This document shows positions 4,470 through 29,616 of a DNA stretch of 29,710 nt, piece after piece. Source of the DNA: a virus. Location: positions 1-29,710 of IMG/VR virus record IMGVR_UViG_3300025626_000090. One strand, written 5' to 3'. A program made the translations under genes and the position numbers. The notes under the pieces are model-generated. The model made no database searches. It was given only the letters and a program-made list of their open reading frames with translations, and was not told the DNA's origin. Numbering within the stretch: the first letter of the stretch is position 1; every line of letters begins with the position of its first letter.

Positions 4470-6518
4470 ATGGAAAAAATACTACATATGGCCTCTACGT
4501 TTAAGTCTCATGAAAATGATGATGGCAGCGTTATGATTCGAGGTATGGCGAGTACTAATCACTCTGACCGAGCAGGAGATGTAATTGCAGCTGAAGCTTG
4601 GGGCAAAGGTGGTTTAGAAAATTTCAAAAATAATCCTGTAATTTTATTTAACCACGACTATGATAAACCTATTGGTCGTGCTACAGGAGTTAAAGTAACT
4701 GACAGCGGACTAGAGCTTGAAGCAAAGATTAGTAAATCTGCGCCAGCAGCAGTCTGCGAACTAGTTAAAGACGGTGTCCTTGGAGCCTTTTCCGTCGGTT
4801 TCAAAGTCAAGGATGCTGATTACATCAAGGAAACTGACGGATTAATGATTAAGGATGCTGAGTTGTTTGAAGTATCGGTTGTTTCGGTACCATGCAATCA
4901 AGCAGCTACTTTTTCGCTCGCGAAATCATTTGACTCAGAAGATGAGTACAATGAATTTAAGAAAACTTTCACCAATCGTGTAGATCTAGCCGGTCAGTCT
5001 CTGGCTAAGGACGAAGATACTTCTTCAAATATAGCTAGTGACACACCGCAAAGCGTGGAGAAATCCACAGATCAGGAGATCAAAATGGAAAATAATACTT
5101 CCTCAATCGACTTGGAAGCATTCGCTAAGCAAGTAGCTGATGAAACTGCTGCTAAAATTGCAATGAAACAAGCCGAAACAAAAGCCGCTGAACAAGCGGA
5201 AGCTAAAGCTGCTCAAGAAGCCGCTGACGCACAAGCTCTAGAAGCTAATAGCATCAAGAGCTCAATCCAAACTGGCATCGAAACTGGCGTTGAAAAACTT
5301 CAGTCAGACCTTGAAAAAGAGTTTGAAGCTAAAAATGCTGACCATGCTGCAATCGTAGCTAAATATCAAGCCGACCTTGAAGAGAAAGGTGCTGAACTAG
5401 AAGCTATGCGTAACAGCAAGCGTGACTTCTCAGGCCGTAAAGGTGCTGAAGTATCAGATTTTGCCAAAGAGTTCTTAGGCGCTCATATTCTTGGTAAAGT
5501 TACTGGTAAAGGTATGGACACTGACTACGGTCGTGAACTTATGGAAAAAGCCGGCGCAGCTGTAACTGCTACTGGTAACGTAACTATCTCTCTAGATACT
5601 ACTGTTGCTACTCAGTTCGAAGAAGAAGTTAAGCTAGAGCAAAAAGTAGCTGGTCTTTTCCGTGAAATCGCTGTAAATGGTGGTGCTACTGTTCTTCCTA
5701 TTAATCCAGATGCTGAAGCAGCTACATTTGCCGCTTCTGCTCCTGCAGGTAACTTAGAAGACAATACTAATGGTACTGCTGCTACTGGTAATGCCTATAA
5801 TGTAGGTCAAGTAATCTTGAAGCCACATCGTTTAATCTCAAGCACAAACTTGAGCAACGATACTGATGAAAAGACTCTTGTGTCTCTTCTTCCAATGCTT
5901 CAAAATGCTATGGCTCGCGCTCACGCACGTGCTAAAGACAAAATGTGCCTATTCGGTAACTCATCTCCTGCTATTAGTGGTTTAGTTGGTGTTAACGGTA
6001 CTGACCAAGGTGTTGGTCTATCTACTGATGCTTCTGCACTTGGCGGACTTGCTGTAACTGACTTCTCTCACGATACTGCTGGTGAGATTCTCACTTCTTT
6101 GGAAGTTGTAAAAGCTCGTTCAGTAATGGGTAAATACGGTCTTAACTCTGACGATCTAGCATTGATTGTTAGCCCGGCAGGTTATATGGAATTAATGCAA
6201 GACTCTGCTTTTGCTGATATTTCTCAGGTAGGTAGCCTATCTACTAAAACATCTGGTTTAGTAGGTTCAATCTATGGTATTCAAGTTATTGTTTCTGACC
6301 TCATTACTCGAGGAAATAACACAACTGTATTCCAGTTAGTTAATACTGCCAACTATGTTATCCCACGTCTACGTGGTGTTAGTATTGAATCTGATTACTC
6401 AGTTACTAACCAACGCACTGATCTTGTTGCAAGTCAGTCAATTGGTTTTGCTGAGCTAGTTGCAGGTTACTCTAACAACAACCCTGCGGTACACGTAATT
6501 TACGACGCGGCAGGCTAA
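4470..6518 (+). CDS. Fused prohead protease - scaffold - major capsid protein
   Basis: The protein has 682 aa and joins three functions that are often separate genes. Residues 1 to about 165 are an HK97-family prohead protease: NHDYDKPIGR with H62, GAFSVGF with S108 and ELFEVSVVSVP with E134 fit the His, Ser and acidic residues of that fold. Residues of about 206-318 are Ala/Glu/Lys-rich and coiled-coil-like, the place of the scaffolding delta domain. A basic stretch (RNSKRDFSGRKG, 314-325) precedes the capsid and is a plausible cleavage region. The HK97-fold capsid core covers about 326-682. An internal start with a strong ribosome site at residue 206 would also make the scaffold-capsid part alone. 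Translation ends at TAA-TAG and a terminator follows. Confidence 0.92.
   Translation: MEKILHMASTFKSHENDDGSVMIRGMASTNHSDRAGDVIAAEAWGKGGLENFKNNPVILFNHDYDKPIGRATGVKVTDSGLELEAKISKSAPAAVCELVKDGVLGAFSVGFKVKDADYIKETDGLMIKDAELFEVSVVSVPCNQAATFSLAKSFDSEDEYNEFKKTFTNRVDLAGQSLAKDEDTSSNIASDTPQSVEKSTDQEIKMENNTSSIDLEAFAKQVADETAAKIAMKQAETKAAEQAEAKAAQEAADAQALEANSIKSSIQTGIETGVEKLQSDLEKEFEAKNADHAAIVAKYQADLEEKGAELEAMRNSKRDFSGRKGAEVSDFAKEFLGAHILGKVTGKGMDTDYGRELMEKAGAAVTATGNVTISLDTTVATQFEEEVKLEQKVAGLFREIAVNGGATVLPINPDAEAATFAASAPAGNLEDNTNGTAATGNAYNVGQVILKPHRLISSTNLSNDTDEKTLVSLLPMLQNAMARAHARAKDKMCLFGNSSPAISGLVGVNGTDQGVGLSTDASALGGLAVTDFSHDTAGEILTSLEVVKARSVMGKYGLNSDDLALIVSPAGYMELMQDSAFADISQVGSLSTKTSGLVGSIYGIQVIVSDLITRGNNTTVFQLVNTANYVIPRLRGVSIESDYSVTNQRTDLVASQSIGFAELVAGYSNNNPAVHVIYDAAG
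5074..5087 (+). promoter_or_regulatory. Internal ribosome-binding site and start codon
   Basis: AGGAG at 5074-5078 sits 6 nt before an in-frame ATG at 5085-5087, inside the protease-capsid fusion. It is a better Shine-Dalgarno signal than the one in front of the full-length ATG at 4470 (AGAGA-like). This placement at the boundary between protease linker and coiled coil argues for a real second start. Confidence 0.7.
5085..6518 (+). CDS. Nested scaffold-major capsid protein (internal start)
   Basis: Initiation at 5085 (M206 of the fusion) gives a 477-aa product with about 110 residues of Ala/Glu/Lys-rich coiled coil and then the HK97-type capsid core. This is the size and layout of a normal HK97 major capsid precursor with its delta domain. 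It would let the phage make hundreds of capsid subunits with few protease copies, as needed for a prohead. The parallel is known: other phages nest scaffold starts inside protease genes (for example lambda C/Nu3). Codons from here on look more GC-rich and uniform (many GCT, GGT, ACT), as expected for a highly expressed protein. That both forms are made is inference. Confidence 0.65.
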   Translation: MENNTSSIDLEAFAKQVADETAAKIAMKQAETKAAEQAEAKAAQEAADAQALEANSIKSSIQTGIETGVEKLQSDLEKEFEAKNADHAAIVAKYQADLEEKGAELEAMRNSKRDFSGRKGAEVSDFAKEFLGAHILGKVTGKGMDTDYGRELMEKAGAAVTATGNVTISLDTTVATQFEEEVKLEQKVAGLFREIAVNGGATVLPINPDAEAATFAASAPAGNLEDNTNGTAATGNAYNVGQVILKPHRLISSTNLSNDTDEKTLVSLLPMLQNAMARAHARAKDKMCLFGNSSPAISGLVGVNGTDQGVGLSTDASALGGLAVTDFSHDTAGEILTSLEVVKARSVMGKYGLNSDDLALIVSPAGYMELMQDSAFADISQVGSLSTKTSGLVGSIYGIQVIVSDLITRGNNTTVFQLVNTANYVIPRLRGVSIESDYSVTNQRTDLVASQSIGFAELVAGYSNNNPAVHVIYDAAG

Positions 6519-6537
6519 TAGTAATACTTTTACTTTT

Positions 6538-6571
6538 AAACTTCGGGGAGGTTCGCCTCCCCCAAGTTTTT
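6538..6571 (+). terminator. Rho-independent terminator after the capsid gene
   Basis: GGGGAGG (6545-6551) and CCTCCCC (6556-6562) form a stem closed by a TTCG loop. It is extended across a C-C mismatch by AAACTT/AAGTTT and followed by a short T run. It lies 20 nt after the capsid stop and probably limits read-through so that capsid transcript exceeds that of the neck genes. Confidence 0.85.
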
Positions 6572-6590
6572 ACTAATGGACTTATAGAAT

Positions 6591-7175
6591 ATGACAGATT
6601 TAATAGCACTTTCAACCTATAAAACAGCAGAAGGCATTCAGGCTACTAAAGATGATGCTAAACTCGAGCTGTTAATTACTTCTGTAAGTCAATTAGTAAA
6701 AACTTATTGTAACGCTACTTTTGTAGACTACTATACAAGTGCAAAAACAGAAATGTTTAATATTAATTATAATGAATCATTTGTACAACTTGCAGAAGGC
6801 CCTGTAGTTATGTCAGAAGGGAATAAGCCAGTAGTGTCAGAAAGAGATAACATTACTAGTTCTTATACTACTCTTACTCAGGATGTAGACTACTATGTTG
6901 ATACAGAGTTAGATTGTATTTATAGAATGAATAAAGCCTGGCCAAAAGGTCCTGGTGCAGTAAAAGTTGTTTATAAAGCAGGCTATGCAACAATACCTGC
7001 AGATTTAAAACTAGCAGTTATTGATTTAATTACATACTATCATAAAGACGAGCACAAAGCACGTCAAACCATTGCGGGTGCGAGCATACAGAATCAAAGC
7101 TCTTCAAGTCAGAGAAACAACGTTGCGTTCCCTGACCATATAAAAAGGGTATTAGATCTTTATAAGAACTTCTAA
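6591..7175 (+). CDS. Head-tail connector (gp6-like adaptor)
   Basis: The protein has 194 aa. The N-terminal half is helical (STYKTAEGIQATKDDAKLELLITSVSQ in pieces), with the pattern in which a small helical bundle starts after TDLIALSTYK. A beta region with FVQLAEGPVV and DYYVDTELDCIYRMNKAWP follows, then VVYKAGYATIPADLKLAVIDLI and a final basic helix. The YKAGYATIPADLKLAV type motif is characteristic of gp6/gp15-like head-tail adaptors, which form the ring beneath the portal. Position just after the capsid gene agrees. It ends at a TAATG junction with the next gene. No strong Shine-Dalgarno is seen at the start, so expression may be modest. Confidence 0.85.
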   Translation: MTDLIALSTYKTAEGIQATKDDAKLELLITSVSQLVKTYCNATFVDYYTSAKTEMFNINYNESFVQLAEGPVVMSEGNKPVVSERDNITSSYTTLTQDVDYYVDTELDCIYRMNKAWPKGPGAVKVVYKAGYATIPADLKLAVIDLITYYHKDEHKARQTIAGASIQNQSSSSQRNNVAFPDHIKRVLDLYKNF

Positions 7176-8512
7176 TGAGTAGACAAGGCCAGCAGAAGTT
7201 TCTAACAACTCTACAAAAGAAACTTTTGAGGGAGTCTAAACATTACAGACAAAAAACAGCAGATAAGCAAACCCACCATTTTAGTGTGCAAAAACATAAA
7301 CTAAAACAGGGAATAGAACAAACTGTAAGTAGTAAGTTTAAAACAAACTCAGATACTCGTATTAGAGAAATTTTAAATATTGTAGACCCAGATATTAATG
7401 CTGCTATAGAGGCTATAAAGAAGGAGCTTCATACCTTAGCAAGAGGTGCTACAGTAGCAAAAGTATATATTACATTCGAAAGACCAGATGGTATAGGAGC
7501 AGTGTTTTACGCTACAAAAACAAACAGTGGCAGGCTAAGAAATGTATATAGACAAGCTGCAATTGCTTCACGAAAACACTTAAATGTTTTAGCAGAAAAA
7601 GTAAATAAGGCTTCTATTAAAGTAACTGGCCGAGGTACGGGATCTAAATCAGCAGATTATTTTCATGTGGAACATGGTCAGAATGAAGGTGTGGCTGAGT
7701 CTCTAGTAAGAGACGCTATATCAGAGTCTATACTAGATATTCCTGATATTAGCTTTCAAGAAGCAAGAGATTGGTTAGAGGCTATGATGCCCGAAATCAC
7801 TATAATAAGAAATACTAAAACTAGTCAGATGAATATTCACATCGGACCAAAATTAGGGAATCTTGCAGAAGGTCGTATATCTAAACAAGAAAAGAAAGAG
7901 TTTACTAATATGGTAGACGACTTAGTAAAAATAGTAAATTCAGATGCTAACTTTCTTCTTGATGCTCCAGGCTCAGATAGTTTTACTGATATACAGAAAA
8001 AGAAAATATTAAAAGCAGCAACTGATCCTTTTAAAAAGGTAAAAAATACTAGAGTTAAAGTAAAAACTAAAGTTAAACATGGTTCTAAAACACCAGTTAA
8101 AAGTAAGGCAAAAAAGTTAAAAATAACTAATCTTACTGCAAAGCCAAAGAAGAAAAAACCTCGTAGAAGAGTAAAAGCAAGTTCCATGGATTTTAATCCT
8201 TTACAAATGATTGGGATGTTGAATAAACAACTTCCCGATACTATAAGAAAAAACATGGTAGCACCAGGATTAGTAAATAGAACAGGTAGATTTTCGGAGA
8301 GTGTAAGAGTAACAGATATTGTACAAACTCCTAAAGGCTTCCCAAGCGTAGGGTACACTTACCAAAAGAATCCTTACGAAGTATTTGAAATGGGTGCAGG
8401 AGATGCAAGATGGGCAACTCCTGAAAGAGACCCAAGAACATTAATTGATAGATCTATTCGAGAATTAGCAACACAGTTTGCAATAGGTAGATTCTACACT
8501 AGGAGAACTTAA
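7175..8512 (+). CDS. Neck-like protein with large N-terminal extension
   Basis: The protein has 445 aa. The C-terminal 105 residues (about 340-445) look like a neck/tail-completion protein of the HK97 gp10 type: a short helix with QLPDTIRKNMVAPGLVNRTG, a SESVRV strand, a GYTYQKNPYEVFEMG strand and a final helix after ERDPRTLIDRSI. Such proteins are usually only about 110-150 aa. Here about 285 residues of unrecognised sequence precede it, joined by a very Lys/Arg-rich linker (about 286-333, containing KPKKKKPRRR). The extension has a helical start, a strand region near 93-113 and SADYFHVEHGQNEG at 159-172. Both ends use TAATG junctions. The neck call rests on the C-terminus and position; the extension has no assigned function. 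Confidence 0.7.
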   Translation: MSRQGQQKFLTTLQKKLLRESKHYRQKTADKQTHHFSVQKHKLKQGIEQTVSSKFKTNSDTRIREILNIVDPDINAAIEAIKKELHTLARGATVAKVYITFERPDGIGAVFYATKTNSGRLRNVYRQAAIASRKHLNVLAEKVNKASIKVTGRGTGSKSADYFHVEHGQNEGVAESLVRDAISESILDIPDISFQEARDWLEAMMPEITIIRNTKTSQMNIHIGPKLGNLAEGRISKQEKKEFTNMVDDLVKIVNSDANFLLDAPGSDSFTDIQKKKILKAATDPFKKVKNTRVKVKTKVKHGSKTPVKSKAKKLKITNLTAKPKKKKPRRRVKASSMDFNPLQMIGMLNKQLPDTIRKNMVAPGLVNRTGRFSESVRVTDIVQTPKGFPSVGYTYQKNPYEVFEMGAGDARWATPERDPRTLIDRSIRELATQFAIGRFYTRRT

Positions 8513-8964
8513 TGGCAGCAAGAGATTATACAACTAGACGCTTGGGTATTGTAAATGCTCTTGCTGAAAAGTTAAAGGATATAAACGGCACAGGAACTTA
8601 TCTTACAGATCTTGCGCAAAATGTATCTCCTAGACTTAAATTTTGGGATGAGGTGGAGGAATTTCCTGCAGTTCACCTAAATGCCGGATCTGAAACCCGC
8701 GAATATCAGGGTGGAGGGTATAAAGATAGATTTCTTTCAGTAACTCTTCGTTGCTATGTGCAAGATGAAGATTCTGTACTCGCTTTAGACGAGTTATTAG
8801 AAGATGTAGAGACTGTACTGGAAGAGAACTCAAAACTAGAGTACAAGGATCGTAATAATGCGACTCAGTACACTCAACAAATCACAATCATTAGTGTAGA
8901 TACTGATGAAGGTGTACTTGAACCTTTAGGTGTTGGTGAAATATCTATAGAGGTTCGATACTAG
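8512..8964 (+). CDS. Tail terminator / tail completion protein
   Basis: The protein has 150 aa. It begins with a helix (RRLGIVNALAEKLKDI), followed by a strand with RLKFWDEVEEFPAVHLNAG, a Gly-rich loop, a long strand FLSVTLRCYVQDED, a helix ALDELLEDVETVLEEN and a last strand ending GVGEISIEVRY. This order and the ending are typical of gpU/gp17-like tail terminators that cap the tube at the head side. Position between neck and tube genes agrees. AGGAG lies 9 nt before the ATG at the TAATG junction. Confidence 0.85.
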   Translation: MAARDYTTRRLGIVNALAEKLKDINGTGTYLTDLAQNVSPRLKFWDEVEEFPAVHLNAGSETREYQGGGYKDRFLSVTLRCYVQDEDSVLALDELLEDVETVLEENSKLEYKDRNNATQYTQQITIISVDTDEGVLEPLGVGEISIEVRY

Positions 8965-9027: not shown

Positions 9028-10161
9028 ATGGCAGATACAATGTTTTTTAGTAGAGATACGAAAGTCTATGTAGCCCCTTTGGCGGCTGACGGGACAACAG
9101 AACAAGCTCTTTTTGAGATTCCTGTTCTTGATGGGTTTTCGTTTTCTCAAGCAACAAATAGTTCAGAAATAACTTTGAACGAAATGTCCGCAGGCTCAAA
9201 TGTAAGCCGACGCGGTCGCAAGATGTTTAACGACTCTCTTGCTCCAGCAGAGTGGAGTTTCTCTACTTATGCACGTCCTTTCGTATCCGGAGGCGGCGGA
9301 GGTACAGGCGACGCAGATGATGCAGCAAACACTCACGCAGTAGAAGAAGTATTGTGGGCAATGATGGTAGGAGATGCATCATACGCCTCTCACACATTTA
9401 ATAATATTACTAATGGTAATGCAGGAGCAGGTACTTCAATTAGTTTTGCTAATTCAAATGTAACTACTCTTGGTATTGCAAACATTTATTTTGTACTTGG
9501 TAAAACTGCTGGAAACAACGGCGGCGAAGTAACGTACAAAATTTCTAACTGCTGTGTAAATGAAGTAGGTGTAGATTTTGATATTGATGGAATTACTACT
9601 CTTAACTGGTCAGGTCAAGGTGCTGAGCTTATCGAAGCAACGGATCTTACAACTACAGCTGCTGTAGTTGAAGGTACTCTAGCTACACAAACCAATAACT
9701 TTATTCGTAATCGTTTAACTGAGCTTGTAGCTTCAAATGCGGCGGGTCAAGCACAAACGTTAACTCTTACAGGTGGTAATATTACAATCTCTAATAACAT
9801 GACATTCCTTACCCCTGAAACTCTAGGTGTTGTAAACACTCCACTATCTCATGTAACAGGCACTCGTTCAGTTTCAGGTAGTTTTACCTGCTATTTATCC
9901 AGTACTTCTAATAGTAGCATGGATTTATTTGAAGCGTTAGTGGAAGATAAGAGTACAGTTACACACGATTTTGATCTTGAGTTTAAGATTGGTGGTGCAG
10001 CTGCTCCGAATTTGATTTTTGATATGCCTTCTTGCCACTTAGAAGTTCCAAGTCATTCTATTGAAGATGTAATTTCATTAGAAGTTAATTTCCACGCACT
10101 TGGTACCGATATCGACTCTACTGACGAAGTACTTGTCAAATACTTAGGTAAGACTTTGTAA
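9028..10161 (+). CDS. Major tail tube protein, two-domain type
   Basis: The protein has 377 aa. It starts with the TKVYVAPLAADG strand and then IPVLDGFSFSQATNSSEI, as in siphophage tube proteins. It appears to contain the tube fold twice: AEWSFSTYARPF plus EEVLWAMMVG (74-115) resembles VSGSFTCYLSS plus MDLFEALVED (282-307). The strand pair YKISNCCVNEVG...LNWSGQGAEL (170-201) resembles LIFDMPSCHLEV...LEVNFHALGTD (329-361). A doubled tube fold building trimeric rings is known from T5 pb6. A Gly-rich loop lies at 87-93 (SGGGGGT). AGGAG precedes the ATG. The next gene is a paralogue. The alternative that this is another tail structural protein is less likely given size and position. Confidence 0.85.
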   Translation: MADTMFFSRDTKVYVAPLAADGTTEQALFEIPVLDGFSFSQATNSSEITLNEMSAGSNVSRRGRKMFNDSLAPAEWSFSTYARPFVSGGGGGTGDADDAANTHAVEEVLWAMMVGDASYASHTFNNITNGNAGAGTSISFANSNVTTLGIANIYFVLGKTAGNNGGEVTYKISNCCVNEVGVDFDIDGITTLNWSGQGAELIEATDLTTTAAVVEGTLATQTNNFIRNRLTELVASNAAGQAQTLTLTGGNITISNNMTFLTPETLGVVNTPLSHVTGTRSVSGSFTCYLSSTSNSSMDLFEALVEDKSTVTHDFDLEFKIGGAAAPNLIFDMPSCHLEVPSHSIEDVISLEVNFHALGTDIDSTDEVLVKYLGKTL

Positions 10162-10186
10162 TAATATAGATAGTAAAAAATATTTC

Positions 10187-10215
10187 TTGACATTTGTGGT
10201 CTCTTGGACTATAAT
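10187..10215 (+). promoter_or_regulatory. Perfect consensus promoter directly before a terminator
   Basis: TTGACA at 10187-10192 and TATAAT at 10210-10215 are spaced by exactly 17 nt, an exact consensus sigma70-type promoter with an A/T-rich stretch upstream. The start site would be near 10222. A strong terminator begins only about 12 nt later, so most transcripts would be about 40 nt unless termination is overcome. Confidence 0.85.
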
Positions 10216-10233
10216 ATGGAATAGGAAAAAGTT

Positions 10234-10262
10234 AAGAAGGGGTCTTTTTCAGACCCCTTTTT
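10234..10262 (+). terminator. Rho-independent terminator between the two tube genes
   Basis: AAGGGGTCT (10237-10245) pairs perfectly with AGACCCCTT (10251-10259) around a TTTTC loop, and TTTTT at 10258-10262 follows. The stem can extend into the A and T flanks. It would end transcripts of the major tube gene and also those from the promoter just upstream. Confidence 0.92.
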
Positions 10263-10277
10263 ATTACTCGGAGAATT

Positions 10278-12548
10278 ATGGCTAATTACAATTTTTTAAA
10301 AGAAGCAAAAGTTTGGTTTGTGCCTATCTCCGAAACAGGTGTAGAGGAAGGCTTAACGCTAACTTCAAGTCAGGCTCACCTTGCAACAATTTATACAGGA
10401 GCAGGAAGTGGCTTTCATTCTTCCCAAGCCATACTACCAACTCTAATGGCAGGAGAAGCGGTATTACCTTCTAGCTTTTCTAATACCAATGAATGTCTGT
10501 TCGAGCATGGTGGTACAGGCGCTGGGTGCTGGATAGGGGTAGTTACTGAAAATGGGCAAAAATTCTTTTATGCTAGGGCAGGAGGTGGTAACTCAAATAC
10601 CGATATTAACACAAACAGTAATTGTGTAGTTGCAAAAACTTTAATAAGTAATATACCTGAATTTGATAATCAGTCTCATACAGTTGCTTGGGAGTTTCAC
10701 CCTACAAATGGTACAGTAAAACTATGGATAGATAATAGACCTGTTTTTAATGAAGTTACTTCAGATAAAAGTGCCTTTGCTTCCAATAAATGGACTGGAG
10801 GTAATATAGGATCTTGGGGAAAAGGACTAGACTCTATAGCAGGAAGAGCTCCTGCAGTTGAAGCAGATTTTTATACCCCTTGGAGTGGAACTATAACTTC
10901 ACCTTTAAGGGTTTATAGTGATCAAGTAGTATTAGACAGGAATAACCACGGCGTACCTATATTACTAGATGTTGAGAGTAATTTACAGTTTAATCAAACT
11001 TTTACTGATAATACTTACTCTCAAAAAACGCTACATGAACCTACTAAGTTTTTTGAAGCGTCAAATATTAAGAAAGCAAATCCGGCAGACATTTCTTTTA
11101 CGCTGCCTATATATGAAGAAGATGATTTTGCACCTGTATATGAATGTTTACGAGAACTAAACTCAAATAATGATTTGAAACAGTTTGATCTATACATTCA
11201 GATGCCAAACGACCTATACTACATAAATAAGTGTGTTGTAAAAAGCGGTTCTTTTTTAATAGAAAGAGATAAGCCTTTAAGACTGCAAATACAAGCACAA
11301 GGGTCGCAGTTAAAACGATATGGCAGTATAGAGGGAGCAAAACGCACCTCCGCTTTTAATTCCTTAACTAGATCAAGCACAAAAACTCATCAAGTATTTA
11401 CAGACCATCTTGAAGCTAGTGTAGACAACACTTCTTTAGATTGTTTGTTTAGTGTGTCGGCAGAACTGCAAAATAGTGTAGAATGGATAGAGAATAAGAC
11501 CGTACAAAAATCTTTTGAAGTAGATAATAATATTCACAGTACTTGGAGATTGGTAGATAATACTTCAGGATATGCAGCTCAGACCGAGAATGATACAACA
11601 GGTCAATATACAGGATCAGCTCCTAGTAGCCCCAATTTCGATATTTATATAGGTAGCCTAACATGGGCAGCAGATAGAAGCTATGTCGATGTTGATATAG
11701 ATATTAACCCATACTCAGGATTTACGGGTACTAACAATATATTATTTGACTTATATTTTGATACGAGTAAGATAGGCTATAGTACTCTTACTACGCATTT
11801 CGATGCCGCAAATATCGCTAATACGTCTGCTATTATTAACGATACTTCTCAGTCCGGGTACAACAAGAAATTCCGAGCAGACTATCTTGAAAGTACTTCC
11901 ACTTTGCCTAAAGATAACGGGTCTACTGTAACATCTTATCCTTATAGTCTGTTTACTATTAGATTTGATATTACTAATAATGCGGTAGGCAGAACAGGTT
12001 TCTTGTGGGATGGTACAGGAGGAGATACGTACTCTTTTAACATTACGGCAGAACACCATTTAGCAATAGACTCTAGTTCGGGTGCTGTAACTTTTAACAA
12101 TAATGGTTTTACAACTAAATCTTCTTATAGTTATTCAGTACAGAGTTTAAGTGAGACAGGAAATGTTTTAAGTACTACAAACCACATAATATCAAATACT
12201 AGTGGTTTAACTAATGGAGATGTAGTTTATACAGCTACAGCTTCATCAGTAGTTAATACTATTTTTCCGCAAAAAGCTATTCTTAAAAATAGAAAGTTAG
12301 CTGGGTCTGTAGGGCAATATGTTACAGACAGTACATCCCATAAGTATGTACAAACACATAAAACTGGAGTACCTGTTGTAATTAAAACAGGAAAAGATAG
12401 TACAACCGGTTTTCAACTTAATATGGGGCAATGCACGTTCACAAACAGAAATACAGTTGCAGATGCCTTTACACAGAGCTTTGATTGGAAAATGAATACT
12501 GCAGGATCCAATACACTAAGCTCTATAATTAAAATTAATAACGCGTAG
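10278..12548 (+). CDS. Tail-tube paralogue with two inserted beta domains
   Basis: The protein has 756 aa. Its scaffold matches the preceding tube protein piece by piece: AKVWFVPISETG (10-21) with TKVYVAPLAADG, VPILLDVESNLQFNQ (226-240) with IPVLDGFSFSQ, ADISFTLPIYEE plus VYECLREL (270-294) with AEWSFSTYARPF plus EEVLWAMM. YYINKCVVKSG...QAQGSQL (314-345) and FQLNMGQCTF...DWKMNTAG (712-743) match its two Cys-containing strand regions. About residues 26-222 are an insert resembling a concanavalin A/LamG-type lectin fold (GCWIGVVTENGQKFFYAR, HTVAWEFHPTNGTVKLWIDN). About 440-650 are a second insert with cohesin- or Ig-like strand patterns (VDVDIDINPYSG, ILFDLYFDTSKIG). The product may be a minor tube or tip-proximal protein displaying binding domains. 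GGAG precedes the ATG. Confidence 0.75.
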   Translation: MANYNFLKEAKVWFVPISETGVEEGLTLTSSQAHLATIYTGAGSGFHSSQAILPTLMAGEAVLPSSFSNTNECLFEHGGTGAGCWIGVVTENGQKFFYARAGGGNSNTDINTNSNCVVAKTLISNIPEFDNQSHTVAWEFHPTNGTVKLWIDNRPVFNEVTSDKSAFASNKWTGGNIGSWGKGLDSIAGRAPAVEADFYTPWSGTITSPLRVYSDQVVLDRNNHGVPILLDVESNLQFNQTFTDNTYSQKTLHEPTKFFEASNIKKANPADISFTLPIYEEDDFAPVYECLRELNSNNDLKQFDLYIQMPNDLYYINKCVVKSGSFLIERDKPLRLQIQAQGSQLKRYGSIEGAKRTSAFNSLTRSSTKTHQVFTDHLEASVDNTSLDCLFSVSAELQNSVEWIENKTVQKSFEVDNNIHSTWRLVDNTSGYAAQTENDTTGQYTGSAPSSPNFDIYIGSLTWAADRSYVDVDIDINPYSGFTGTNNILFDLYFDTSKIGYSTLTTHFDAANIANTSAIINDTSQSGYNKKFRADYLESTSTLPKDNGSTVTSYPYSLFTIRFDITNNAVGRTGFLWDGTGGDTYSFNITAEHHLAIDSSSGAVTFNNNGFTTKSSYSYSVQSLSETGNVLSTTNHIISNTSGLTNGDVVYTATASSVVNTIFPQKAILKNRKLAGSVGQYVTDSTSHKYVQTHKTGVPVVIKTGKDSTTGFQLNMGQCTFTNRNTVADAFTQSFDWKMNTAGSNTLSSIIKINNA

Positions 12549-16300: not shown

Positions 16301-17745
16301 AACTTGACATAGAGTTTGATCTTATAAAACTACAGTTTGATTTAGAAAAAGCACGAATTGATAGACTTGTAAAAGAAGGAAAGATAAGTGCTGAAGATGC
16401 AAAAACTTTAAAGGCTCCGATTAATGCAGTAAATGCTAAAATCGAAGGAACAGGCGGCCTACGAGAAACAGCAAAAGCAGGTGCTACAGATGCAAGTAAA
16501 GCTGCGGGAGACAAAGCCGCACACGATATAGCCATGAAACAGGCAGAAGCGGAGCAAGAAAGATTTAATAAAAAGATATCTCGTTTTAATGATGTGGCAA
16601 AAGCAGGTATACAAGCAGAAAGAGATATTGAAAATGCAACTGCGTTAAGAGCGCAGAGAGAGGCTGAAATTGCACAGGCTGTAAAAGCTGGCACCATGAC
16701 CAAAGCAGAGGGTGATCAAGCTATTTATGATACTAAAGCTGCTGCTTTGAATTCTTATGCTTCTTCTGTAGGCAGTACTTTGTCTTCAATCGGAGATGCT
16801 ATGGCTGCTATTGGTCCTGAAGGCGAGCTAATGAGTGCCACTTTATCAGGTGTTGGTAGTATGACTGAGTCTTTTACTAACGCCTTTACCGTAATTAAAG
16901 ATGAAAGTGCTTCTATGGCTGAAAAGATGCAAGCAGGTCTTGGAGCAATAGGATCTGCTATCTCAGCAATTGGAGGCATGCAGAAAGCTTCTTCAGAAGC
17001 CCGGGTTAAAGCACTAGATAGCGAAATCGCGGCAGAGAAAAAGAGAGATGGAAGATCTGCAGGTAGTCAAGCAAAAATTTCAGCATTAGAAAAGAAAAGA
17101 GAGTTAGAAAAACGAAAAGCATTTGAGCAAGATAAAAAAATGAAAATTGCTCAAACTGTTATCTCTACCATGCAAGGTGCTATATCAGCATACACAGCTA
17201 TGGCCGTTATTCCTATTGTTGGTCCAGCTCTTGGTGCCGCAGCTGCTGGAATGGTACTACAGATGGGTAAACAACAAGTTGCAGCAATTAAAGCTACTAC
17301 TTATCAGGGAGGCAGTGTTTCAGGGGGTCCATCATCTATCAGCATGGGAGATAGATCGAACTCTGTAGACTTAGCTGCAGGAGGTAGTCAGGGTGGCGAA
17401 CTTGCTTATATGAGAGGTGGCTCTGGCACAGGAAATGCAACAAACTTTACCCCTGCTTTTTCAGGTTATAAACATAGAGCTGCAGGAGGCTCCGCAGGCT
17501 ACATAGTAGGTGAGCAAGGCCCAGAGTTATTCGTACCAGAAACTTCAGGAGAAATAATGTCTGCAGGAGATACCTCAAAAATGGCCGCTCCAACAAATAT
17601 AAACTTTACAGTAAGTGCAGTAGACGCAACAGGTGTTGAAGATCTACTAATAGCACAAAGAGGAAATATAATAAAAATGATCAGACAAGCAGCTAATCAG
17701 CAAGGAGAATACTTTTTAGAAAGAGTATCGGAGAGTGAATTATAA
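13336..17745 (+). CDS. Tape measure protein
   Basis: The protein has 1469 aa and starts at GTG 13336, inside the end of the chaperone ORF. It sets tail length and enters the cell envelope during DNA ejection. It is largely Ala/Lys/Glu-rich helix, with a glycine-free coiled-coil stretch around 540-1150. Hydrophobic segments lie near 69-95 (SGLVAAYATLMAHVFALTAA), 285-303, 500-525 (FVPIIGWAFTAFSLLSPLLG) and 1289-1310 (IPIVGPALGAAAAGMVLQM). The C-terminal region has the GYIVGEQGPELFVPETSG motif (about 1388-1406), typical of phage tape measures. No lysozyme or peptidase domain is visible. By the usual rule of roughly 0.15 nm per residue the tail would be about 220 nm long. Reverse-strand ORFs within it, for example 16131-16703, are shadows. 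Confidence 0.95.
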   Translation: MADNTVQVTFKVNSDGSLQQVAKNADKAAKGMDKANASTVNYNRSARGVANLQGNQTKAFAATARGTSGLVAAYATLMAHVFALTAAFGALQRASALQQLEKGLIAVGNAAGQNLPYVAQEIQNITGSAVTLQEAMEGTALAMSAGFGIDQLKELTKVARGASIALGRNMGDALTRLVKGTAKLEPEILDELGIMVRLDKASQDYAASLGKTVTQLTRFEKQQAFLNATIDQGQKKFSVVIDSIDPDPYSKLSSAFQDLVKDMTTLINVGLIPVINFLSNSKFAMTGAIILFASSITRMLLPALGDMAAANAATSAQQAASATSAARVVSTQYLGAVKKVNAAFKTVPPSVKAVEAQFRAGTLTVAQYKSALTQLMKSEKLRAIRIKANGANASADKKRELAEIRTLIAETQRLIALEGQRTMLGGKGQLAKTSSKLSKRQSIYQNKIGESSVMGGFAVAGKGAKQHFKDVGKASGKLNKLKLGLEATTKSAGLFGSALLRFVPIIGWAFTAFSLLSPLLGDMFKKGAVAKAADEVVDSFDSFARVANQLNKELEKTDSMFERTNKMLSVRVGLLNQVSAGVNKVVSAQQEENAQKEEEALKALVKARNAEVGILLSAIAKKNNITLAEKRYQAILNKSKGISKEAAQRVLEEAKARIEATGMTKVFGNELIKLEKIQSRLAGFEEGQLIDADSLVKSVSDIEKPAKALKAAQAEANEATIKLENQLKSASEKSKGMFGELYTNVSGLVNALNLLKEKAEETGTSNIELVTKEQRTEVERLAKALDSDMVLSIAADGTETVNYHKTLENIQDIVAKNNKTAAQAVEISRNHANTAKQIGDIAKMNSVAYELQLSFEVDSLEAAKKGLEAKRSNLLAQEGISSQSEEVLKLDQQINNTQQKINSHSENGIKISMRLEQVKQRNLGYDTRALGIQEKIAKNAQDQVKRELELKRKKIGAEVTAADEVLILKKAEQENSKNRAARLAAELTKLDIEFDLIKLQFDLEKARIDRLVKEGKISAEDAKTLKAPINAVNAKIEGTGGLRETAKAGATDASKAAGDKAAHDIAMKQAEAEQERFNKKISRFNDVAKAGIQAERDIENATALRAQREAEIAQAVKAGTMTKAEGDQAIYDTKAAALNSYASSVGSTLSSIGDAMAAIGPEGELMSATLSGVGSMTESFTNAFTVIKDESASMAEKMQAGLGAIGSAISAIGGMQKASSEARVKALDSEIAAEKKRDGRSAGSQAKISALEKKRELEKRKAFEQDKKMKIAQTVISTMQGAISAYTAMAVIPIVGPALGAAAAGMVLQMGKQQVAAIKATTYQGGSVSGGPSSISMGDRSNSVDLAAGGSQGGELAYMRGGSGTGNATNFTPAFSGYKHRAAGGSAGYIVGEQGPELFVPETSGEIMSAGDTSKMAAPTNINFTVSAVDATGVEDLLIAQRGNIIKMIRQAANQQGEYFLERVSESEL

Positions 17746-18686
17746 TGCCAGCATCAACAGCTTTTTCAAATATATTACCAGATCCAAGTAACCCAATTAA
17801 TGATGCGGGTCAGGCTTCTGCATCTGACTTTGCCCCTGGTTTTTCTACAGTTAAACTTGCGTCTGAATCAAAAACTATATTCAACTCCACTAATTCTGGT
17901 AGGTTGATTACTTCTGCGTCTGGAGGACACAAATGGAGTGTAGATGTTACCTATAATCCACTCACTAGAGATGAGTTTGAACCTGTTTTTAATTTCTTAC
18001 TACATAAGAAAGGTAGACTAACTCCTTTTTTTATGTCTCTTCCTCAAAATAAAGTACCAAGAGATAGTTTATTTGCAACCTTTGTCACAAGTAAGGATAA
18101 TTTTGTAATGTATACTAGCCCGGTTCTAATAACGAGCCTTGAAGTAAATAGAGAATACCATATTCAGTTCTCCCCTGCAGATACAAATTTTGTAACAGTT
18201 GGAGCAGCAAGCGATGTTGCTCATGTCACGTTTACAGCTACTGGTACTGGTACTGGTACAGGACTTGCTGCACCCACTTATGAGCCTGCGGGACAAGATA
18301 ATATAACTATTAGCAATGTTACCGATAGTTATACTAGAACTACACATGGAACTCCCAAACCTGGAGATATATTTACTGTGACAGACAGCAGTGATGCATT
18401 ACACACAAAATTATATAAAATTACCAGAGTAGAAACCCCAGATCATTATGAGACTGCGGTTCCTAATCAACAGGTACATTCGTTGCCTGAACAAGCTCCT
18501 AACGAAACTGATGTTACGAGAATATACTTTACACCAGCTCTGCAAAGAAATCTATACAGCGGAGCTTCTATTAAATTTTATGACCCTAAAATAAGGGTTG
18601 TTATGACCGATGACATACAGGAGTATTCCTTGAATAATGATAACTTGTACACTTTTGCTCTTAAACTTGAGGAGGCTCAAAAATAA
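17745..18686 (+). CDS. Distal-tail-like (Dit/minor tail) protein with inserted domain
   Basis: The protein has 313 aa. The core begins with SASGGHKWSVDVTYNPLTRD and DEFEPVFNFLLHKKGRLTPFFMSLP (57-100), a pattern seen in minor tail proteins that sit under the tape measure, and resumes near 260 with RIYFTPALQRN and a final strand ending YTFALKLEEAQK. About residues 125-258 are an insert. Its first part (REYHIQFSPADTNFVTVGA and FTATGTGTGTG) matches a small beta module of the form YKI...T-F-x-GA...FTATG-GTGTG found in many phage tail proteins. It starts at a TAATG junction with the tape-measure gene. Function as the tail-tip adaptor ring is inferred from order and core pattern. Confidence 0.75.
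   Translation: MPASTAFSNILPDPSNPINDAGQASASDFAPGFSTVKLASESKTIFNSTNSGRLITSASGGHKWSVDVTYNPLTRDEFEPVFNFLLHKKGRLTPFFMSLPQNKVPRDSLFATFVTSKDNFVMYTSPVLITSLEVNREYHIQFSPADTNFVTVGAASDVAHVTFTATGTGTGTGLAAPTYEPAGQDNITISNVTDSYTRTTHGTPKPGDIFTVTDSSDALHTKLYKITRVETPDHYETAVPNQQVHSLPEQAPNETDVTRIYFTPALQRNLYSGASIKFYDPKIRVVMTDDIQEYSLNNDNLYTFALKLEEAQK
18240..18257 (+). repeat. Three tandem ACTGGT hexamers
   Basis: ACTGGT is repeated three times and encodes the TGTGTG part of a Thr-Gly run in the Dit-like protein. The run is a known ending of the inserted module; the perfect DNA repeat suggests recent slippage expansion. Confidence 0.8.
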
Positions 18687-28198: not shown

Positions 28199-28219
28199 AA
28201 AAGGGGGCTTACGCCCCCT
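28197..28219 (-). terminator. Terminator between convergent gene blocks
   Basis: AGGGGGC (28202-28208) and GCCCCCT (28213-28219) enclose a TTAC loop. On the minus strand six T residues follow the stem, so this is a good intrinsic terminator for the nrd operon. On the plus strand only a poor pyrimidine stretch follows, so stopping of the hub transcript may be weaker. The minus-strand stop codon lies in the loop. Confidence 0.85.
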
Positions 28220-28406
28220 CCTTACTTTCTAACTCATCAGCCAGTAATTGTTTAAATCCATTACTGGCTACTTCTAGCCGGTCTATTTTTGCTTTCTCTA
28301 TTGCAAGCTCATTTTGTATCTCTTCTATCTGTGCTACCATATATCTGGCCCGATCTGATAGATCTTCTACTGTATATTTTTTGTCATTAAATGTAATGTC
28401 TGTCAT
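28209..28406 (-). CDS. DUF6447-like small protein
   Basis: The protein has 65 aa. It begins MTDITFNDKKYTVEDLSD and continues as one acidic/basic helix (QIEEIQNELAIEKAKIDRLEVA) ending FKQLLADELESKEGA. The short strand-turn head with a KKYTVEDLSDRAR pattern followed by a coiled-coil-like helix is what I know as DUF6447 in marine phages; no function is established. An AGGA lies 6 nt before the ATG. It is the last gene of the minus-strand nrd block, 8 nt after nrdB, and its stop codon lies in the loop of the terminator hairpin. Confidence 0.75.
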   Translation of the reverse strand: MTDITFNDKKYTVEDLSDRARYMVAQIEEIQNELAIEKAKIDRLEVASNGFKQLLADELESKEGA

Positions 28407-28414
28407 TTTATTTC

Positions 28415-29377
28415 CTATTTAAATATATCTTGCCAATTTCCAGTTGTACTCGCTTTTGAATACTCAGTGGCTCTGTTTTCAAAAAAGTTAGCGTGTTCTA
28501 CGCCATTTAGCATATAGTCTAGCCAGTCTAAAGGATTTTTATCACTACCAAAAATCTTTTTAAGCCCTAGTCCTAATAGTCTTCGATCTGCAATATATCG
28601 AATGTATAGCTTTACATCTTCTGGAGTAAGGTCAGGTACATCAGCACCTTTAAAGCACAAGTCAATAAAGGCATCTTCTAGCTCTACAGAACGCTCTGCC
28701 GCACAATAGATTTCATACTTCAGATCATCGTTCCATAACTCTGGATTTTCTTGAATATAAGTACGGAATAATTGACTCATGCCTTCAACGTGAAGACTTT
28801 CATCTCGCACAGACCAAGTAACAATCTGACCCATACCTTTCATCAAGTTATGTCGGGGGAAGTTCAACAGAATAGCAAAACTACTAAACAACTGTACTCC
28901 TTCGGTAAAACCTGAGTAGATAGCCATAGTCTTTGCGATGTCCATTTTGGTATCCATACCAAAGTTGCTAAGATGTTCGTGCTTATCCATCATAGCTTTG
29001 TGTTCCATAAACTTCTGATACTCATCATCACCGAAACCGAGTGTTTCTAGTAGTAATGAATATGCTTCCTGATGCACTGCCTCCATTGCCGCAAATGCCG
29101 ATAGCATCATACGTACTTCAGGTTGTTTAAATGTTGGCAAATAGTGTGTAGCATAACCACAGCATACGTCAACATCTGCTTGTGTAAAGAAACGAAAGAT
29201 ATTCGCTAGTAAAGACTTGTTGCCTTCGCTAAGGTTCTCACGAAAATCCTTTAAATCATCTGCAAGGTTTACTTCATCAGGTAACCAGTGCATATGCTGT
29301 TGAGACTTATAATGCTCAAAAGCCCACGGATAGTTAAAGGGTTTATAATACTCTCTTTCTTCTAATAAATTACTCAT
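28415..29377 (-). CDS. nrdB: Class I ribonucleotide reductase beta subunit
   Basis: The protein has 320 aa from the ATG at 29377. It carries the di-iron-tyrosyl radical that starts reduction of ribonucleotides to deoxyribonucleotides in the alpha subunit, feeding phage DNA synthesis. All ligands are present: D68, E99 and H102 (EAVH), E159 (SGFTEGV), E193 and H196 (RDESLH), and the radical tyrosine Y106 lies seven residues after E99 as in E. coli. So it looks like an active class Ia-type radical protein. A longer frame begins at GTG 29386, but the ATG is preferred: it overlaps the redoxin stop as ATGA and has GGAG 8 nt upstream. The C-terminal tail (after about 305) should bind the alpha subunit. 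Confidence 0.95.
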   Translation of the reverse strand: MSNLLEEREYYKPFNYPWAFEHYKSQQHMHWLPDEVNLADDLKDFRENLSEGNKSLLANIFRFFTQADVDVCCGYATHYLPTFKQPEVRMMLSAFAAMEAVHQEAYSLLLETLGFGDDEYQKFMEHKAMMDKHEHLSNFGMDTKMDIAKTMAIYSGFTEGVQLFSSFAILLNFPRHNLMKGMGQIVTWSVRDESLHVEGMSQLFRTYIQENPELWNDDLKYEIYCAAERSVELEDAFIDLCFKGADVPDLTPEDVKLYIRYIADRRLLGLGLKKIFGSDKNPLDWLDYMLNGVEHANFFENRATEYSKASTTGNWQDIFK

Positions 29378-29616
29378 GATAACCACTCCATTATATCGGC
29401 CTTGCTTTTACCACCTACTAGACGTCCTTGCTCCGCCCCTTCGCTTGTAAGAAGTACCATAGTAGGTACTCCTCTTATACCAAACTCACCAGCTAACTCT
29501 GGTTGTTTATCTATATCTACACTTTCTACTGGATAAGGTAGAACCATTTCATTAAGAGTGTTTTCTAACATCTTACAAGGCCTACACCAATCAGCACTAA
29601 ATTTTAATATTTTCAT
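29374..29616 (-). CDS. Thioredoxin-like protein between nrdA and nrdB
   Basis: The protein has 80 aa, shorter than bacterial thioredoxins (about 105 aa). The redox centre is W10-C11-R12-P13-C14, and a GVPT motif at 49-52 provides the cis-proline P51. MKILKFSADW and a final helix (KADIMEWLS) complete a minimal thioredoxin/glutaredoxin fold. It lies between the two reductase genes, 1 nt after the nrdA stop and with a 4-nt ATGA overlap with nrdB. It therefore most likely reduces the C-terminal cysteine pair of NrdA after each turnover. WCRPC rather than WCGPC may tune potential or partner choice. Confidence 0.9.
   Translation of the reverse strand: MKILKFSADWCRPCKMLENTLNEMVLPYPVESVDIDKQPELAGEFGIRGVPTMVLLTSEGAEQGRLVGGKSKADIMEWLS

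What the first reader, a model, noticed from the sequence alone, without database searches (positions are those of the whole stretch)
9028..12548. Tail tube gene followed by a paralogue carrying two inserted binding-type domains
The 756-aa product can be matched to the 377-aa tube protein in six separate segments, including both Cys-containing strand regions. The extra length falls in two blocks, one per half: a lectin (ConA/LamG)-like block at about 26-222 and a cohesin/Ig-like block at about 440-650. Such a protein could form special rings, or be mixed into the tube, and display glycan-binding domains along or at one end of the tail. I do not recall this exact layout being described.
Basis: partly seen in the sequence, partly recalled or inferred. 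Interest (0 to 1): 0.75.

Follow-up and report, generated by a model that had tools for sequence, protein, structure and literature searches.

The report
Phage baseplate ring carrying inserted lectin
In a marine virus of bacteria, the protein that should form the last ring of the tail tube (the relative of phage T5 p140) has swallowed a lectin-like domain and a cohesin-like block, so a structural ring that is bare in T5 has probably become a sugar-gripping ring; the lectin was gained or lost several times and also sits in tail-tip proteins of unrelated phages.

Summary
The 377-aa ORF is a T5 pb6-type tube protein. The 756-aa ORF is a distant tube-fold paralogue with two inserts, within about 20 residues of the stated positions. 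It is not a generic tube variant: it is a homologue of T5 p140 (PF23779, E 2.7e-15), in T5 the single trimeric ring between the last tube ring and the distal tail protein. Insert 1 (about 19-228) folds as a ConA/LamG-type lectin (CBM40-like, Z 12-13). Insert 2 (about 423-651) is a cohesin-like domain plus a small beta domain (Z up to 9.8). Of 75 p140 cores, 56 have no insert, 15 have insert 1 only (two lectin types at one site), 4 have both. One pair, 85% identical, differs by a clean swap of 7 for 205 residues. The same lectin lies in tip or hub proteins of other phages. The two-insert clade lacks, where visible, the T5-type collar/fibre genes. Most likely the ring displays adhesins at the tail tip; ring placement is by homology and sugar binding is untested. 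New variant of a known kind: a lectin-decorated p140 ring is, as far as I could find, undescribed.

The parts
9028..10161 (+). major tail tube protein, T5 pb6-type (double tube domain, 377 aa)
   Evidence: phrog_3575 E 1.2e-56; PF18906 E 3e-10; T5-like pb6 32% identity over 97%
10187..10215 (+). consensus sigma-70 promoter TTGACA-N17-TATAAT upstream of the p140-type gene
   Evidence: 12 of 12 matches; 41 of 49 non-redundant relatives have at least 11 of 12, against 0.1 in shuffles
10237..10266 (+). terminator-like hairpin AAGGGGTCTTTTTCAGACCCCTT + T tract between promoter and start codon
   Evidence: sequence; same promoter-then-hairpin order in 20 of 49 relatives, 0 in shuffles
10278..12548 (+). 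T5 p140-type baseplate tube ring protein with two inserts (756 aa)
   Evidence: PF23779 E 2.7e-15, phrog_3889 'base plate tail tube protein' E 3.4e-14; model Z 22-23 to T5 p140 and pb6
10278..10331 (+). core segment 1: first strand of tube domain 1 (residues 1-18)
   Evidence: core HMM positions 1-18
10332..10961 (+). insert 1: ConA/LamG-type lectin-like domain (residues about 19-228)
   Evidence: absent from 56 of 75 relatives; fold match to CBM40 / NanB lectin domain Z 12-13.5; homologous domain in tip and hub proteins of other phages
10962..11543 (+). core segment 2: rest of tube domain 1 and start of tube domain 2 (residues 229-422)
   Evidence: core HMM positions 22-209; PF23779 best stretch 224-417
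11544..12230 (+). insert 2 (residues about 423-651), in the long beta2-beta3-type loop of tube domain 2
   Evidence: present only in window, L001-L004; position from alignment and secondary structure
11631..12053 (+). cohesin-like beta-sandwich within insert 2 (residues about 452-592)
   Evidence: separate AlphaFold model; best hits are cohesins, Z up to 9.8 over 122 residues, 3.2 A
12054..12230 (+). small second beta domain of insert 2 (residues about 593-651), cadherin-like by motif only
   Evidence: strands in the model; weak protocadherin match E 0.55
12231..12545 (+). core segment 3: rest of tube domain 2 (residues 652-756)
   Evidence: core HMM positions about 199-300
17745..18686 (+). 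distal tail protein (313 aa), predicted next ring below p140; about 65-75 aa longer than in one-insert relatives
   Evidence: phrog_1302 E 7e-15; alignment with L004, L012, L091
18686..28198 (+). central tip protein (3170 aa, J-like); followed directly by convergent genes, no collar/fibre module
   Evidence: phrog_31 central tail fiber J E 6.9e-10; gene order compared

Best explanation
The 756-aa protein is the T5 p140-type baseplate ring of a marine siphophage. Three copies, each with two tube domains, form one pseudo-hexameric ring between the last tube ring and the distal tail protein (placement inferred from T5). A ConA/LamG-type lectin is grafted into the beta1-beta2 turn of tube domain 1, and a cohesin-like plus a small beta domain into the long loop of tube domain 2. 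The ring thus carries three lectins and three cohesin-like blocks around the tail tip. The lectins most likely bind capsule, LPS or exopolysaccharide reversibly while the central tip protein makes the committed contact; this step is inferred. The lectin is a mobile module exchanged among tip proteins. Insert 2 most likely gives ring-to-distal-tail support or a second adhesive surface (the weakest step).
For: p140 identity: PF23779 E 2.7e-15 and phrog_3889 E 3.4e-14; the T5-like protein of the same family (PF23779 E 1.4e-142, PDB 7qg9_I 'Baseplate tube protein p140') aligns with the marine family over 248 columns, E 4e-4; same gene order as in a T5-like phage. Linkage: loci with p140 that reach far enough have a homologue of the window's distal tail protein; loci without p140 lack it apart from two partial weak matches. 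Fold: Z 22-23 over the whole core. Insert 1 is a discrete module: clean swap in L049 against L053 (p140 core 85% identical); about 6 changes of insert state on the core tree, at least 5 on well-supported branches; two lectin types, one of them Laminin_G_3, at the same site. Adhesin role: homologous domain at 45-48% identity inside tip proteins (L173 at least 2655 aa, L175) and at about 30-35% inside hub proteins of Rhodobacter/Dinoroseobacter phages; fold nearest to sugar-binding CBM40 domains; the R4C roseophage hub carries a carbohydrate-binding domain (PMC10276861). Insert 2: cohesin fold, Z 9.8.
Against: No virion, binding or copy-number data exist. Structural identity of the core to T5 p140 is only 10-16%, and structure alone does not separate p140 from pb6 (Z 22 against 23, tied). 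Insert 1 of the window reaches no Pfam lectin family on its own (one homologue Laminin_G_3 at E 0.005), and no sugar site was identified; a lectin fold does not prove sugar binding. Insert 2 has only 4 distinct full sequences, pLDDT about 69 and moderate Z.
Confidence: 0.72

Rival explanations
1. Substitution of the collar: in the two-insert clade the decorated ring replaces the p132-type collar and side fibres of T5-like phages, the inserts (with a longer distal tail protein and a larger tip protein) taking over fibre anchoring or adhesion.
For: A p132-like collar gene (112 aa, distant LtfC relative) is found in 15 of 16 insert-less records that reach at least 16 kb downstream and in 2 of 3 one-insert ones, but not in the window or in the 57.6-kb L004 record (downstream reach worked out from the contig ranges). 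In L012 and L091 the tip gene is followed by the collar-like gene and fibres; in window and L004 the tip gene (3170/3547 against 2092/2116 aa) is followed at once by convergent ribonucleotide-reductase genes, and the distal tail protein is about 65-75 aa longer. In T5 p140 is said to be bare because p132 surrounds it (PMC10038345).
Against: Only two related records, so in effect one event; both are fragments, so the module may lie elsewhere. One-insert phages L012, L091 and L143 keep the collar gene, so a lectin insert alone is compatible with it; insert-less L147 and one-insert L161 lack it in their records.
Confidence: 0.3
2. Insert 1 is a polysaccharide-degrading enzyme (jelly-roll lyase or glucanase) that clears capsule, not a lectin.
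For: Jelly-roll fold shared with lyases and glucanases; one homologue has a weak PF14099 polysaccharide-lyase match (E 0.013-0.017); residues R81, D111, H115, W119 and D133 of the aligned domain are invariant across p140, tip and hub contexts.
Against: No match over a family cut-off; the structural list is headed by non-catalytic CBM40 and LamG-type domains; several invariant residues belong to the ordinary LamG-type 'FD..H..W ... LWID' core, so are probably structural.
Confidence: 0.12
3. The protein is a minor or alternative tube subunit mixed along the tail, displaying the inserts along its length (one of the first reader's options).
For: Tube fold and adjacency to the tube gene; in SPP1 an extended tube subunit is mixed in along the tail (PMC8718954).
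Against: Family membership with p140, one ring per virion in T5 (PMC10038345); only remote similarity to the tube; separate promoter; co-occurrence with the distal tail protein; insert 2 sits in the loop that makes ring-to-ring contacts in tubes.
Confidence: 0.06
4. The inserts mainly brace the tail tip (ring-ring, ring-tip contacts) and do not bind the host.
For: Insert 2 lies in the inter-ring loop and changes together with the distal tail and tip proteins; the inserted domain 2 of the YSD1 tube protein stabilises its ring (PMC8718954).
Against: Insert 1 was gained and lost repeatedly and swapped for another lectin type while neighbours hardly changed, which is unlike a bracing part; it recurs in unrelated tip and hub proteins.
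Confidence: 0.15

Closest known systems
T5 p140 (baseplate tube protein; PF23779, phrog_3889)
   Same: Double tube-domain protein encoded between the tube protein and the tail assembly/tape measure genes; profile match well over the curated cut-off; model Z 22
   Different: T5 p140 is 298 aa and described as lacking decoration; here it carries about 440 extra residues in two inserts, and a collar gene was not found
'Evolved' Dit and CBM-extended major tail proteins of lactococcal 936 phages (PMC6669499)
   Same: Sugar-binding module grafted onto a tube-fold structural protein of the siphophage tail, exchanged as a building brick
   Different: Host protein is Dit or the major tail protein, modules are BppA-like CBMs, hosts are Gram-positive; here the host protein is the p140 ring and the lectin is ConA/LamG-type
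Roseophage R4C / RcGTA-like hub ('megatron') with carbohydrate-binding domain (PMC10276861)
   Same: A tail-tip protein of a marine phage with a carbohydrate-binding domain; related phages (R5C, RcKeef) carry the same lectin family as insert 1 in their GTA-like hub protein
   Different: Domain sits in the hub, not in the tube-end ring; R4C's own domain is described as CBM11-like
YSD1 major tail protein with inserted domain 2 (PMC8718954)
   Same: Beta-sandwich domain inserted within a tube domain
   Different: Main tube subunit, other insertion site (between alpha1 and beta4), role in ring stability
CBM40 lectin domains of NanB/NanC sialidases; cohesins
   Same: Nearest solved folds to insert 1 (Z 12-13.5) and to the main domain of insert 2 (Z 9.8)
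   Different: No significant sequence match; ligand or partner unknown here

Membership tests
T5 p140 baseplate tube protein (PF23779 / phrog_3889) | profile match over the curated cut-off | tested here: met
   56.7 bits against cut-off 27, E 2.7e-15; phrog_3889 E 3.4e-14; insert-less relatives match end to end, E 1.5e-21
T5 p140 baseplate tube protein (PF23779 / phrog_3889) | two fused tube domains | tested here: met
   model superposes over residues 3-756 on T5 p140 and pb6, Z 22-23
T5 p140 baseplate tube protein (PF23779 / phrog_3889) | gene directly after the tube gene and before the tail chaperone/tape measure genes | tested here: met
   same order in a T5-like phage
T5 p140 baseplate tube protein (PF23779 / phrog_3889) | trimeric ring between last tube ring and distal tail protein | not testable with these tools
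   needs virion structure; genetic linkage with the distal tail gene supports it
T5 p140 baseplate tube protein (PF23779 / phrog_3889) | surrounded by a p132 collar | tested here: inconclusive
   no p132-like gene in window or in 57.6-kb L004 record, both fragments
ConA-like / LamG lectin (insert 1) | jelly-roll fold | tested here: met
   Z 12-13.5 to CBM40 and NanB lectin domains over about 165 residues, 3.2-3.5 A
ConA-like / LamG lectin (insert 1) | match to a Pfam LamG/lectin family | tested here: not met
   none for the window domain; one homologue at E 0.005. Type B inserts of L015 and L143 do match Laminin_G_3
ConA-like / LamG lectin (insert 1) | binds a carbohydrate | not testable with these tools
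   needs a binding assay
Cohesin (insert 2, main domain) | cohesin beta-sandwich fold | tested here: met
   cohesins head the list, Z up to 9.8 over 122 residues; model pLDDT about 69
Cohesin (insert 2, main domain) | Pfam cohesin match | tested here: not met
   no family at E up to 1
Cohesin (insert 2, main domain) | dockerin partner | not tested
   not searched for
Evolved Dit / CBM-extended major tail protein | host protein is Dit or the major tail protein | tested here: not met
   the window has separate genes for both; the host protein is p140-type

The most novel reading that the evidence does not exclude
In the two-insert clade the p140 ring has taken over the job of the T5 collar and side fibres: host adhesion built directly into a tube ring, with the collar/fibre cassette lost and the distal tail and tip proteins enlarged in step.
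Probability: 0.3. Interest if true: 0.65.

Novelty: new variant of a known kind. Interest (0 to 1): 0.52.

Why it matters
T5 p140 has been explained as a bare ring because the p132 collar must fit around it. Here the same ring carries domains in many marine phages, including some that still encode a collar-like protein (L012, L091, L143), so that explanation cannot be general. The natural pairs with and without the lectin (for example L049 and L053) make the role of a single adhesin graft directly testable, and the lectin links tube-end rings, hub proteins and central fibres of unrelated phages as one shared set of adhesion parts.

Tried and rejected
phmmer of the full 756-aa protein and profile searches of the family and of each insert against PDB sequences gave only chance hits (nuclear-receptor zinc fingers, LSm, protocadherin), so sequence alone does not place the inserts. 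Pfam found nothing for insert 2. A scan of viral contigs with insert 2 found only the known clade, and one with the L004 protein found no further two-insert contigs. My first idea, that any p140 insert excludes a p132 collar, came from a weak LtfC search and was refuted by a better profile: one-insert L012, L091 and L143 keep the gene. Recent in-genome duplication of the tube gene was rejected: p140 is an old paralogue spread over the whole lineage and T5-like phages. Polysaccharide lyase for insert 1 is kept only as a rival. Fold matches of insert 1 to toxin binding domains are generic jelly-roll matches and carry no meaning here. No Rfam family in the window. Two literature searches for a decorated p140 ring found nothing relevant, but only open-licence papers are held. 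No isolate phage in the collection holds lectin and p140 core together at tblastn sensitivity; an unexamined 526-aa 'putative major tail protein' of an uncultured virus tops the viral fold search and may be one.
Full report
WHAT IS THERE. The window is a complete 29,710-base IMG/VR virus record, a fragment of a phage genome. It holds a siphophage head and tail cassette on the + strand: terminase, portal, a fused protease-capsid ORF, neck, tail terminator (8512-8964), tube (9028-10161), the 756-aa ORF (10278-12548), chaperones, tape measure, distal tail protein and a 3170-aa J-like tip protein. The tube ORF is a T5 pb6-type major tail protein (phrog_3575 E 1.2e-56; 32% identity to T5-like pb6).

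THE OBSERVATION. The 756-aa protein does match the tube remotely (profile-profile E 1.9e-5, both Cys strands aligned), and its extra length lies in two blocks. A core model built from ten insert-less relatives (301 positions) places insert 1 between core positions 18 and 22 (residues about 19-228) and insert 2 near core position 205 (residues about 423-651).

WHAT THE CORE IS. The core is not simply another tube subunit. It hits PF23779 Baseplate_Tube_p140 (E 2.7e-15, twice the cut-off score) and phrog_3889 'base plate tail tube protein'. The T5-like protein of the same Pfam family is very close to PDB 7qg9_I, p140, and aligns with the marine family over 248 columns (E 4e-4). In T5, p140 is one trimeric ring between the last pb6 ring and the distal tail protein pb9, probably a pb6 duplicate, bare, and ringed by the p132 collar that anchors the side fibres (PMC10038345). 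The gene order here is the same as in a T5-like phage. Among the 80 relatives fetched by their tube gene, those with a p140 that reach far enough also have the window-type distal tail gene, while those lacking p140 have a different tip gene set (two of them with a partial, weak distal-tail match). That linkage fits a ring that joins this tube to that distal tail protein.

THE FOLDS. An AlphaFold model from 42 family members (mean pLDDT 74) superposes on T5 pb6 (Z 23.3) and T5 p140 (Z 22.2) over the whole core, and insert 1 alone (24-224) matches CBM40 and NanB lectin domains at Z 12-13.5. Insert 2 modelled alone (pLDDT 69, four sequences) matches cohesins first, Z up to 9.8 over 122 residues; a small beta domain follows. 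By alignment and predicted strands, insert 1 lies in the beta1-beta2 turn of tube domain 1 and insert 2 in the beta2-beta3 long loop of tube domain 2 (inference); in T5 pb6 the long loops make ring-to-ring contacts and their deletion stops tube formation (PMC5717097; PMC8718954).

THE INSERTS ACROSS RELATIVES. Of 75 distinct p140 cores, 56 have no insert, 10 have insert 1 of the window's kind (type A), 5 have another, Laminin_G_3-type insert at the same site (type B), and 4 (window, L002, L003, L004) have insert 1 plus insert 2; L001, identical to the window over its 619 residues, also has both. The L004 insert 1 is only about 25% identical to the window's. The core tree needs about 6 changes of insert state, at least 5 on well-supported branches. 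L049 and L053 have p140 cores 85% identical and similar flanks, but a seven-residue stretch in L053 is replaced by about 205 residues of lectin in L049. So the lectin is a module gained and lost whole.

THE LECTIN ELSEWHERE. The type A domain occurs at 45-48% identity inside tip proteins of two other marine phages (L173, at least 2655 aa, and L175), which have lambda-type tip genes upstream; at about 30-35% in hub proteins of Rhodobacter and Dinoroseobacter phages; and in an ORF of Paracoccus phage ParKuw1. Sixteen residues are invariant over 14 sequences from these contexts. Its other homes are mostly where phages touch hosts, and the solved roseophage R4C has a carbohydrate-binding domain in its hub (PMC10276861). 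This is the main support for an adhesin role; binding itself is untested.

COLLAR. With a profile of p132-like proteins (112 aa), a collar-like gene was found in 23 of 39 p140-bearing records. Counting only records that reach at least 16 kb past p140 (my arithmetic from the contig ranges), it is in 15 of 16 insert-less, 2 of 3 one-insert and 0 of 2 two-insert records. In one-insert L012 and L091 the tip gene is followed by the collar-like gene and fibres; in the window and L004 it is followed at once by convergent ribonucleotide-reductase genes, the tip protein is 1000-1400 aa longer and the distal tail protein about 65-75 aa longer. This suggests, on one lineage only, that decoration may have replaced the collar and fibres.

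EXPRESSION. p140 begins its own transcription unit: a near-consensus sigma-70 promoter lies upstream in 41 of 49 non-redundant relatives (0.1 expected), and in the window's type a terminator-like hairpin sits between promoter and start codon. In another group the hairpin precedes the promoter. This fits the low copy number expected for one ring as against a tube of many rings (40 in T5, PMC11313276).

SHOWN AND INFERRED. Shown by computation: ORFs, homology to p140, tube fold, module nature of insert 1, its recurrence in tip proteins. Inferred: ring position and trimer (from T5), exposure of inserts, sugar binding, role of insert 2, replacement of the collar.

VERDICT. A real, well-bounded feature: a new variant (decorated p140 ring) of a known kind (adhesin modules grafted onto tube-fold tail proteins).

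Noticed in passing
window 10187-10266; upstream of p140 genes in L002-L004, L012, L028, L049, L053 and others: Perfect TTGACA-N17-TATAAT promoter followed about 20 nt later by a strong terminator-like hairpin, both in front of the p140 gene; 41 of 49 relatives keep the promoter and 20 of 49 keep the promoter-then-hairpin order. Looks like an attenuated or antiterminated leader; in another group the hairpin precedes the promoter.
   Followed up: partly
L070:8824-11649: A 941-aa ORF between tube and p140 matches the tube family and carries a large repetitive middle (repeats such as SGDYMIVGIPG, propeller-like): a third tube paralogue with a big insert.
   Followed up: no
L040:4184-5422 and 5434-6597: Two consecutive full-length tube genes (412 and 387 aa), the second still E 3e-107 to the window tube.
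   Followed up: no
tube genes of L049, L053, L071, L164, L039-L043, L078: Tube proteins of 412-564 aa against 377 in the window: inserts in the major tube protein itself are common in this lineage.
   Followed up: no
L006, L017, L021, L029-L031, L045-L047 and others: Close tube relatives with no p140 gene and a different tip gene set after the tape measure; p140 presence goes with the window-type distal tail gene.
   Followed up: partly
window 4470-6518: One 682-aa ORF matches both head maturation protease and major head protein families: a fused protease-capsid gene.
   Followed up: no
window 28208-29616, minus strand; same order in L201: Convergent ribonucleotide reductase small chain and a thioredoxin/glutaredoxin-like ORF directly after the tip gene, conserved in L004, where one-insert relatives have the collar/fibre module.
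   Followed up: partly
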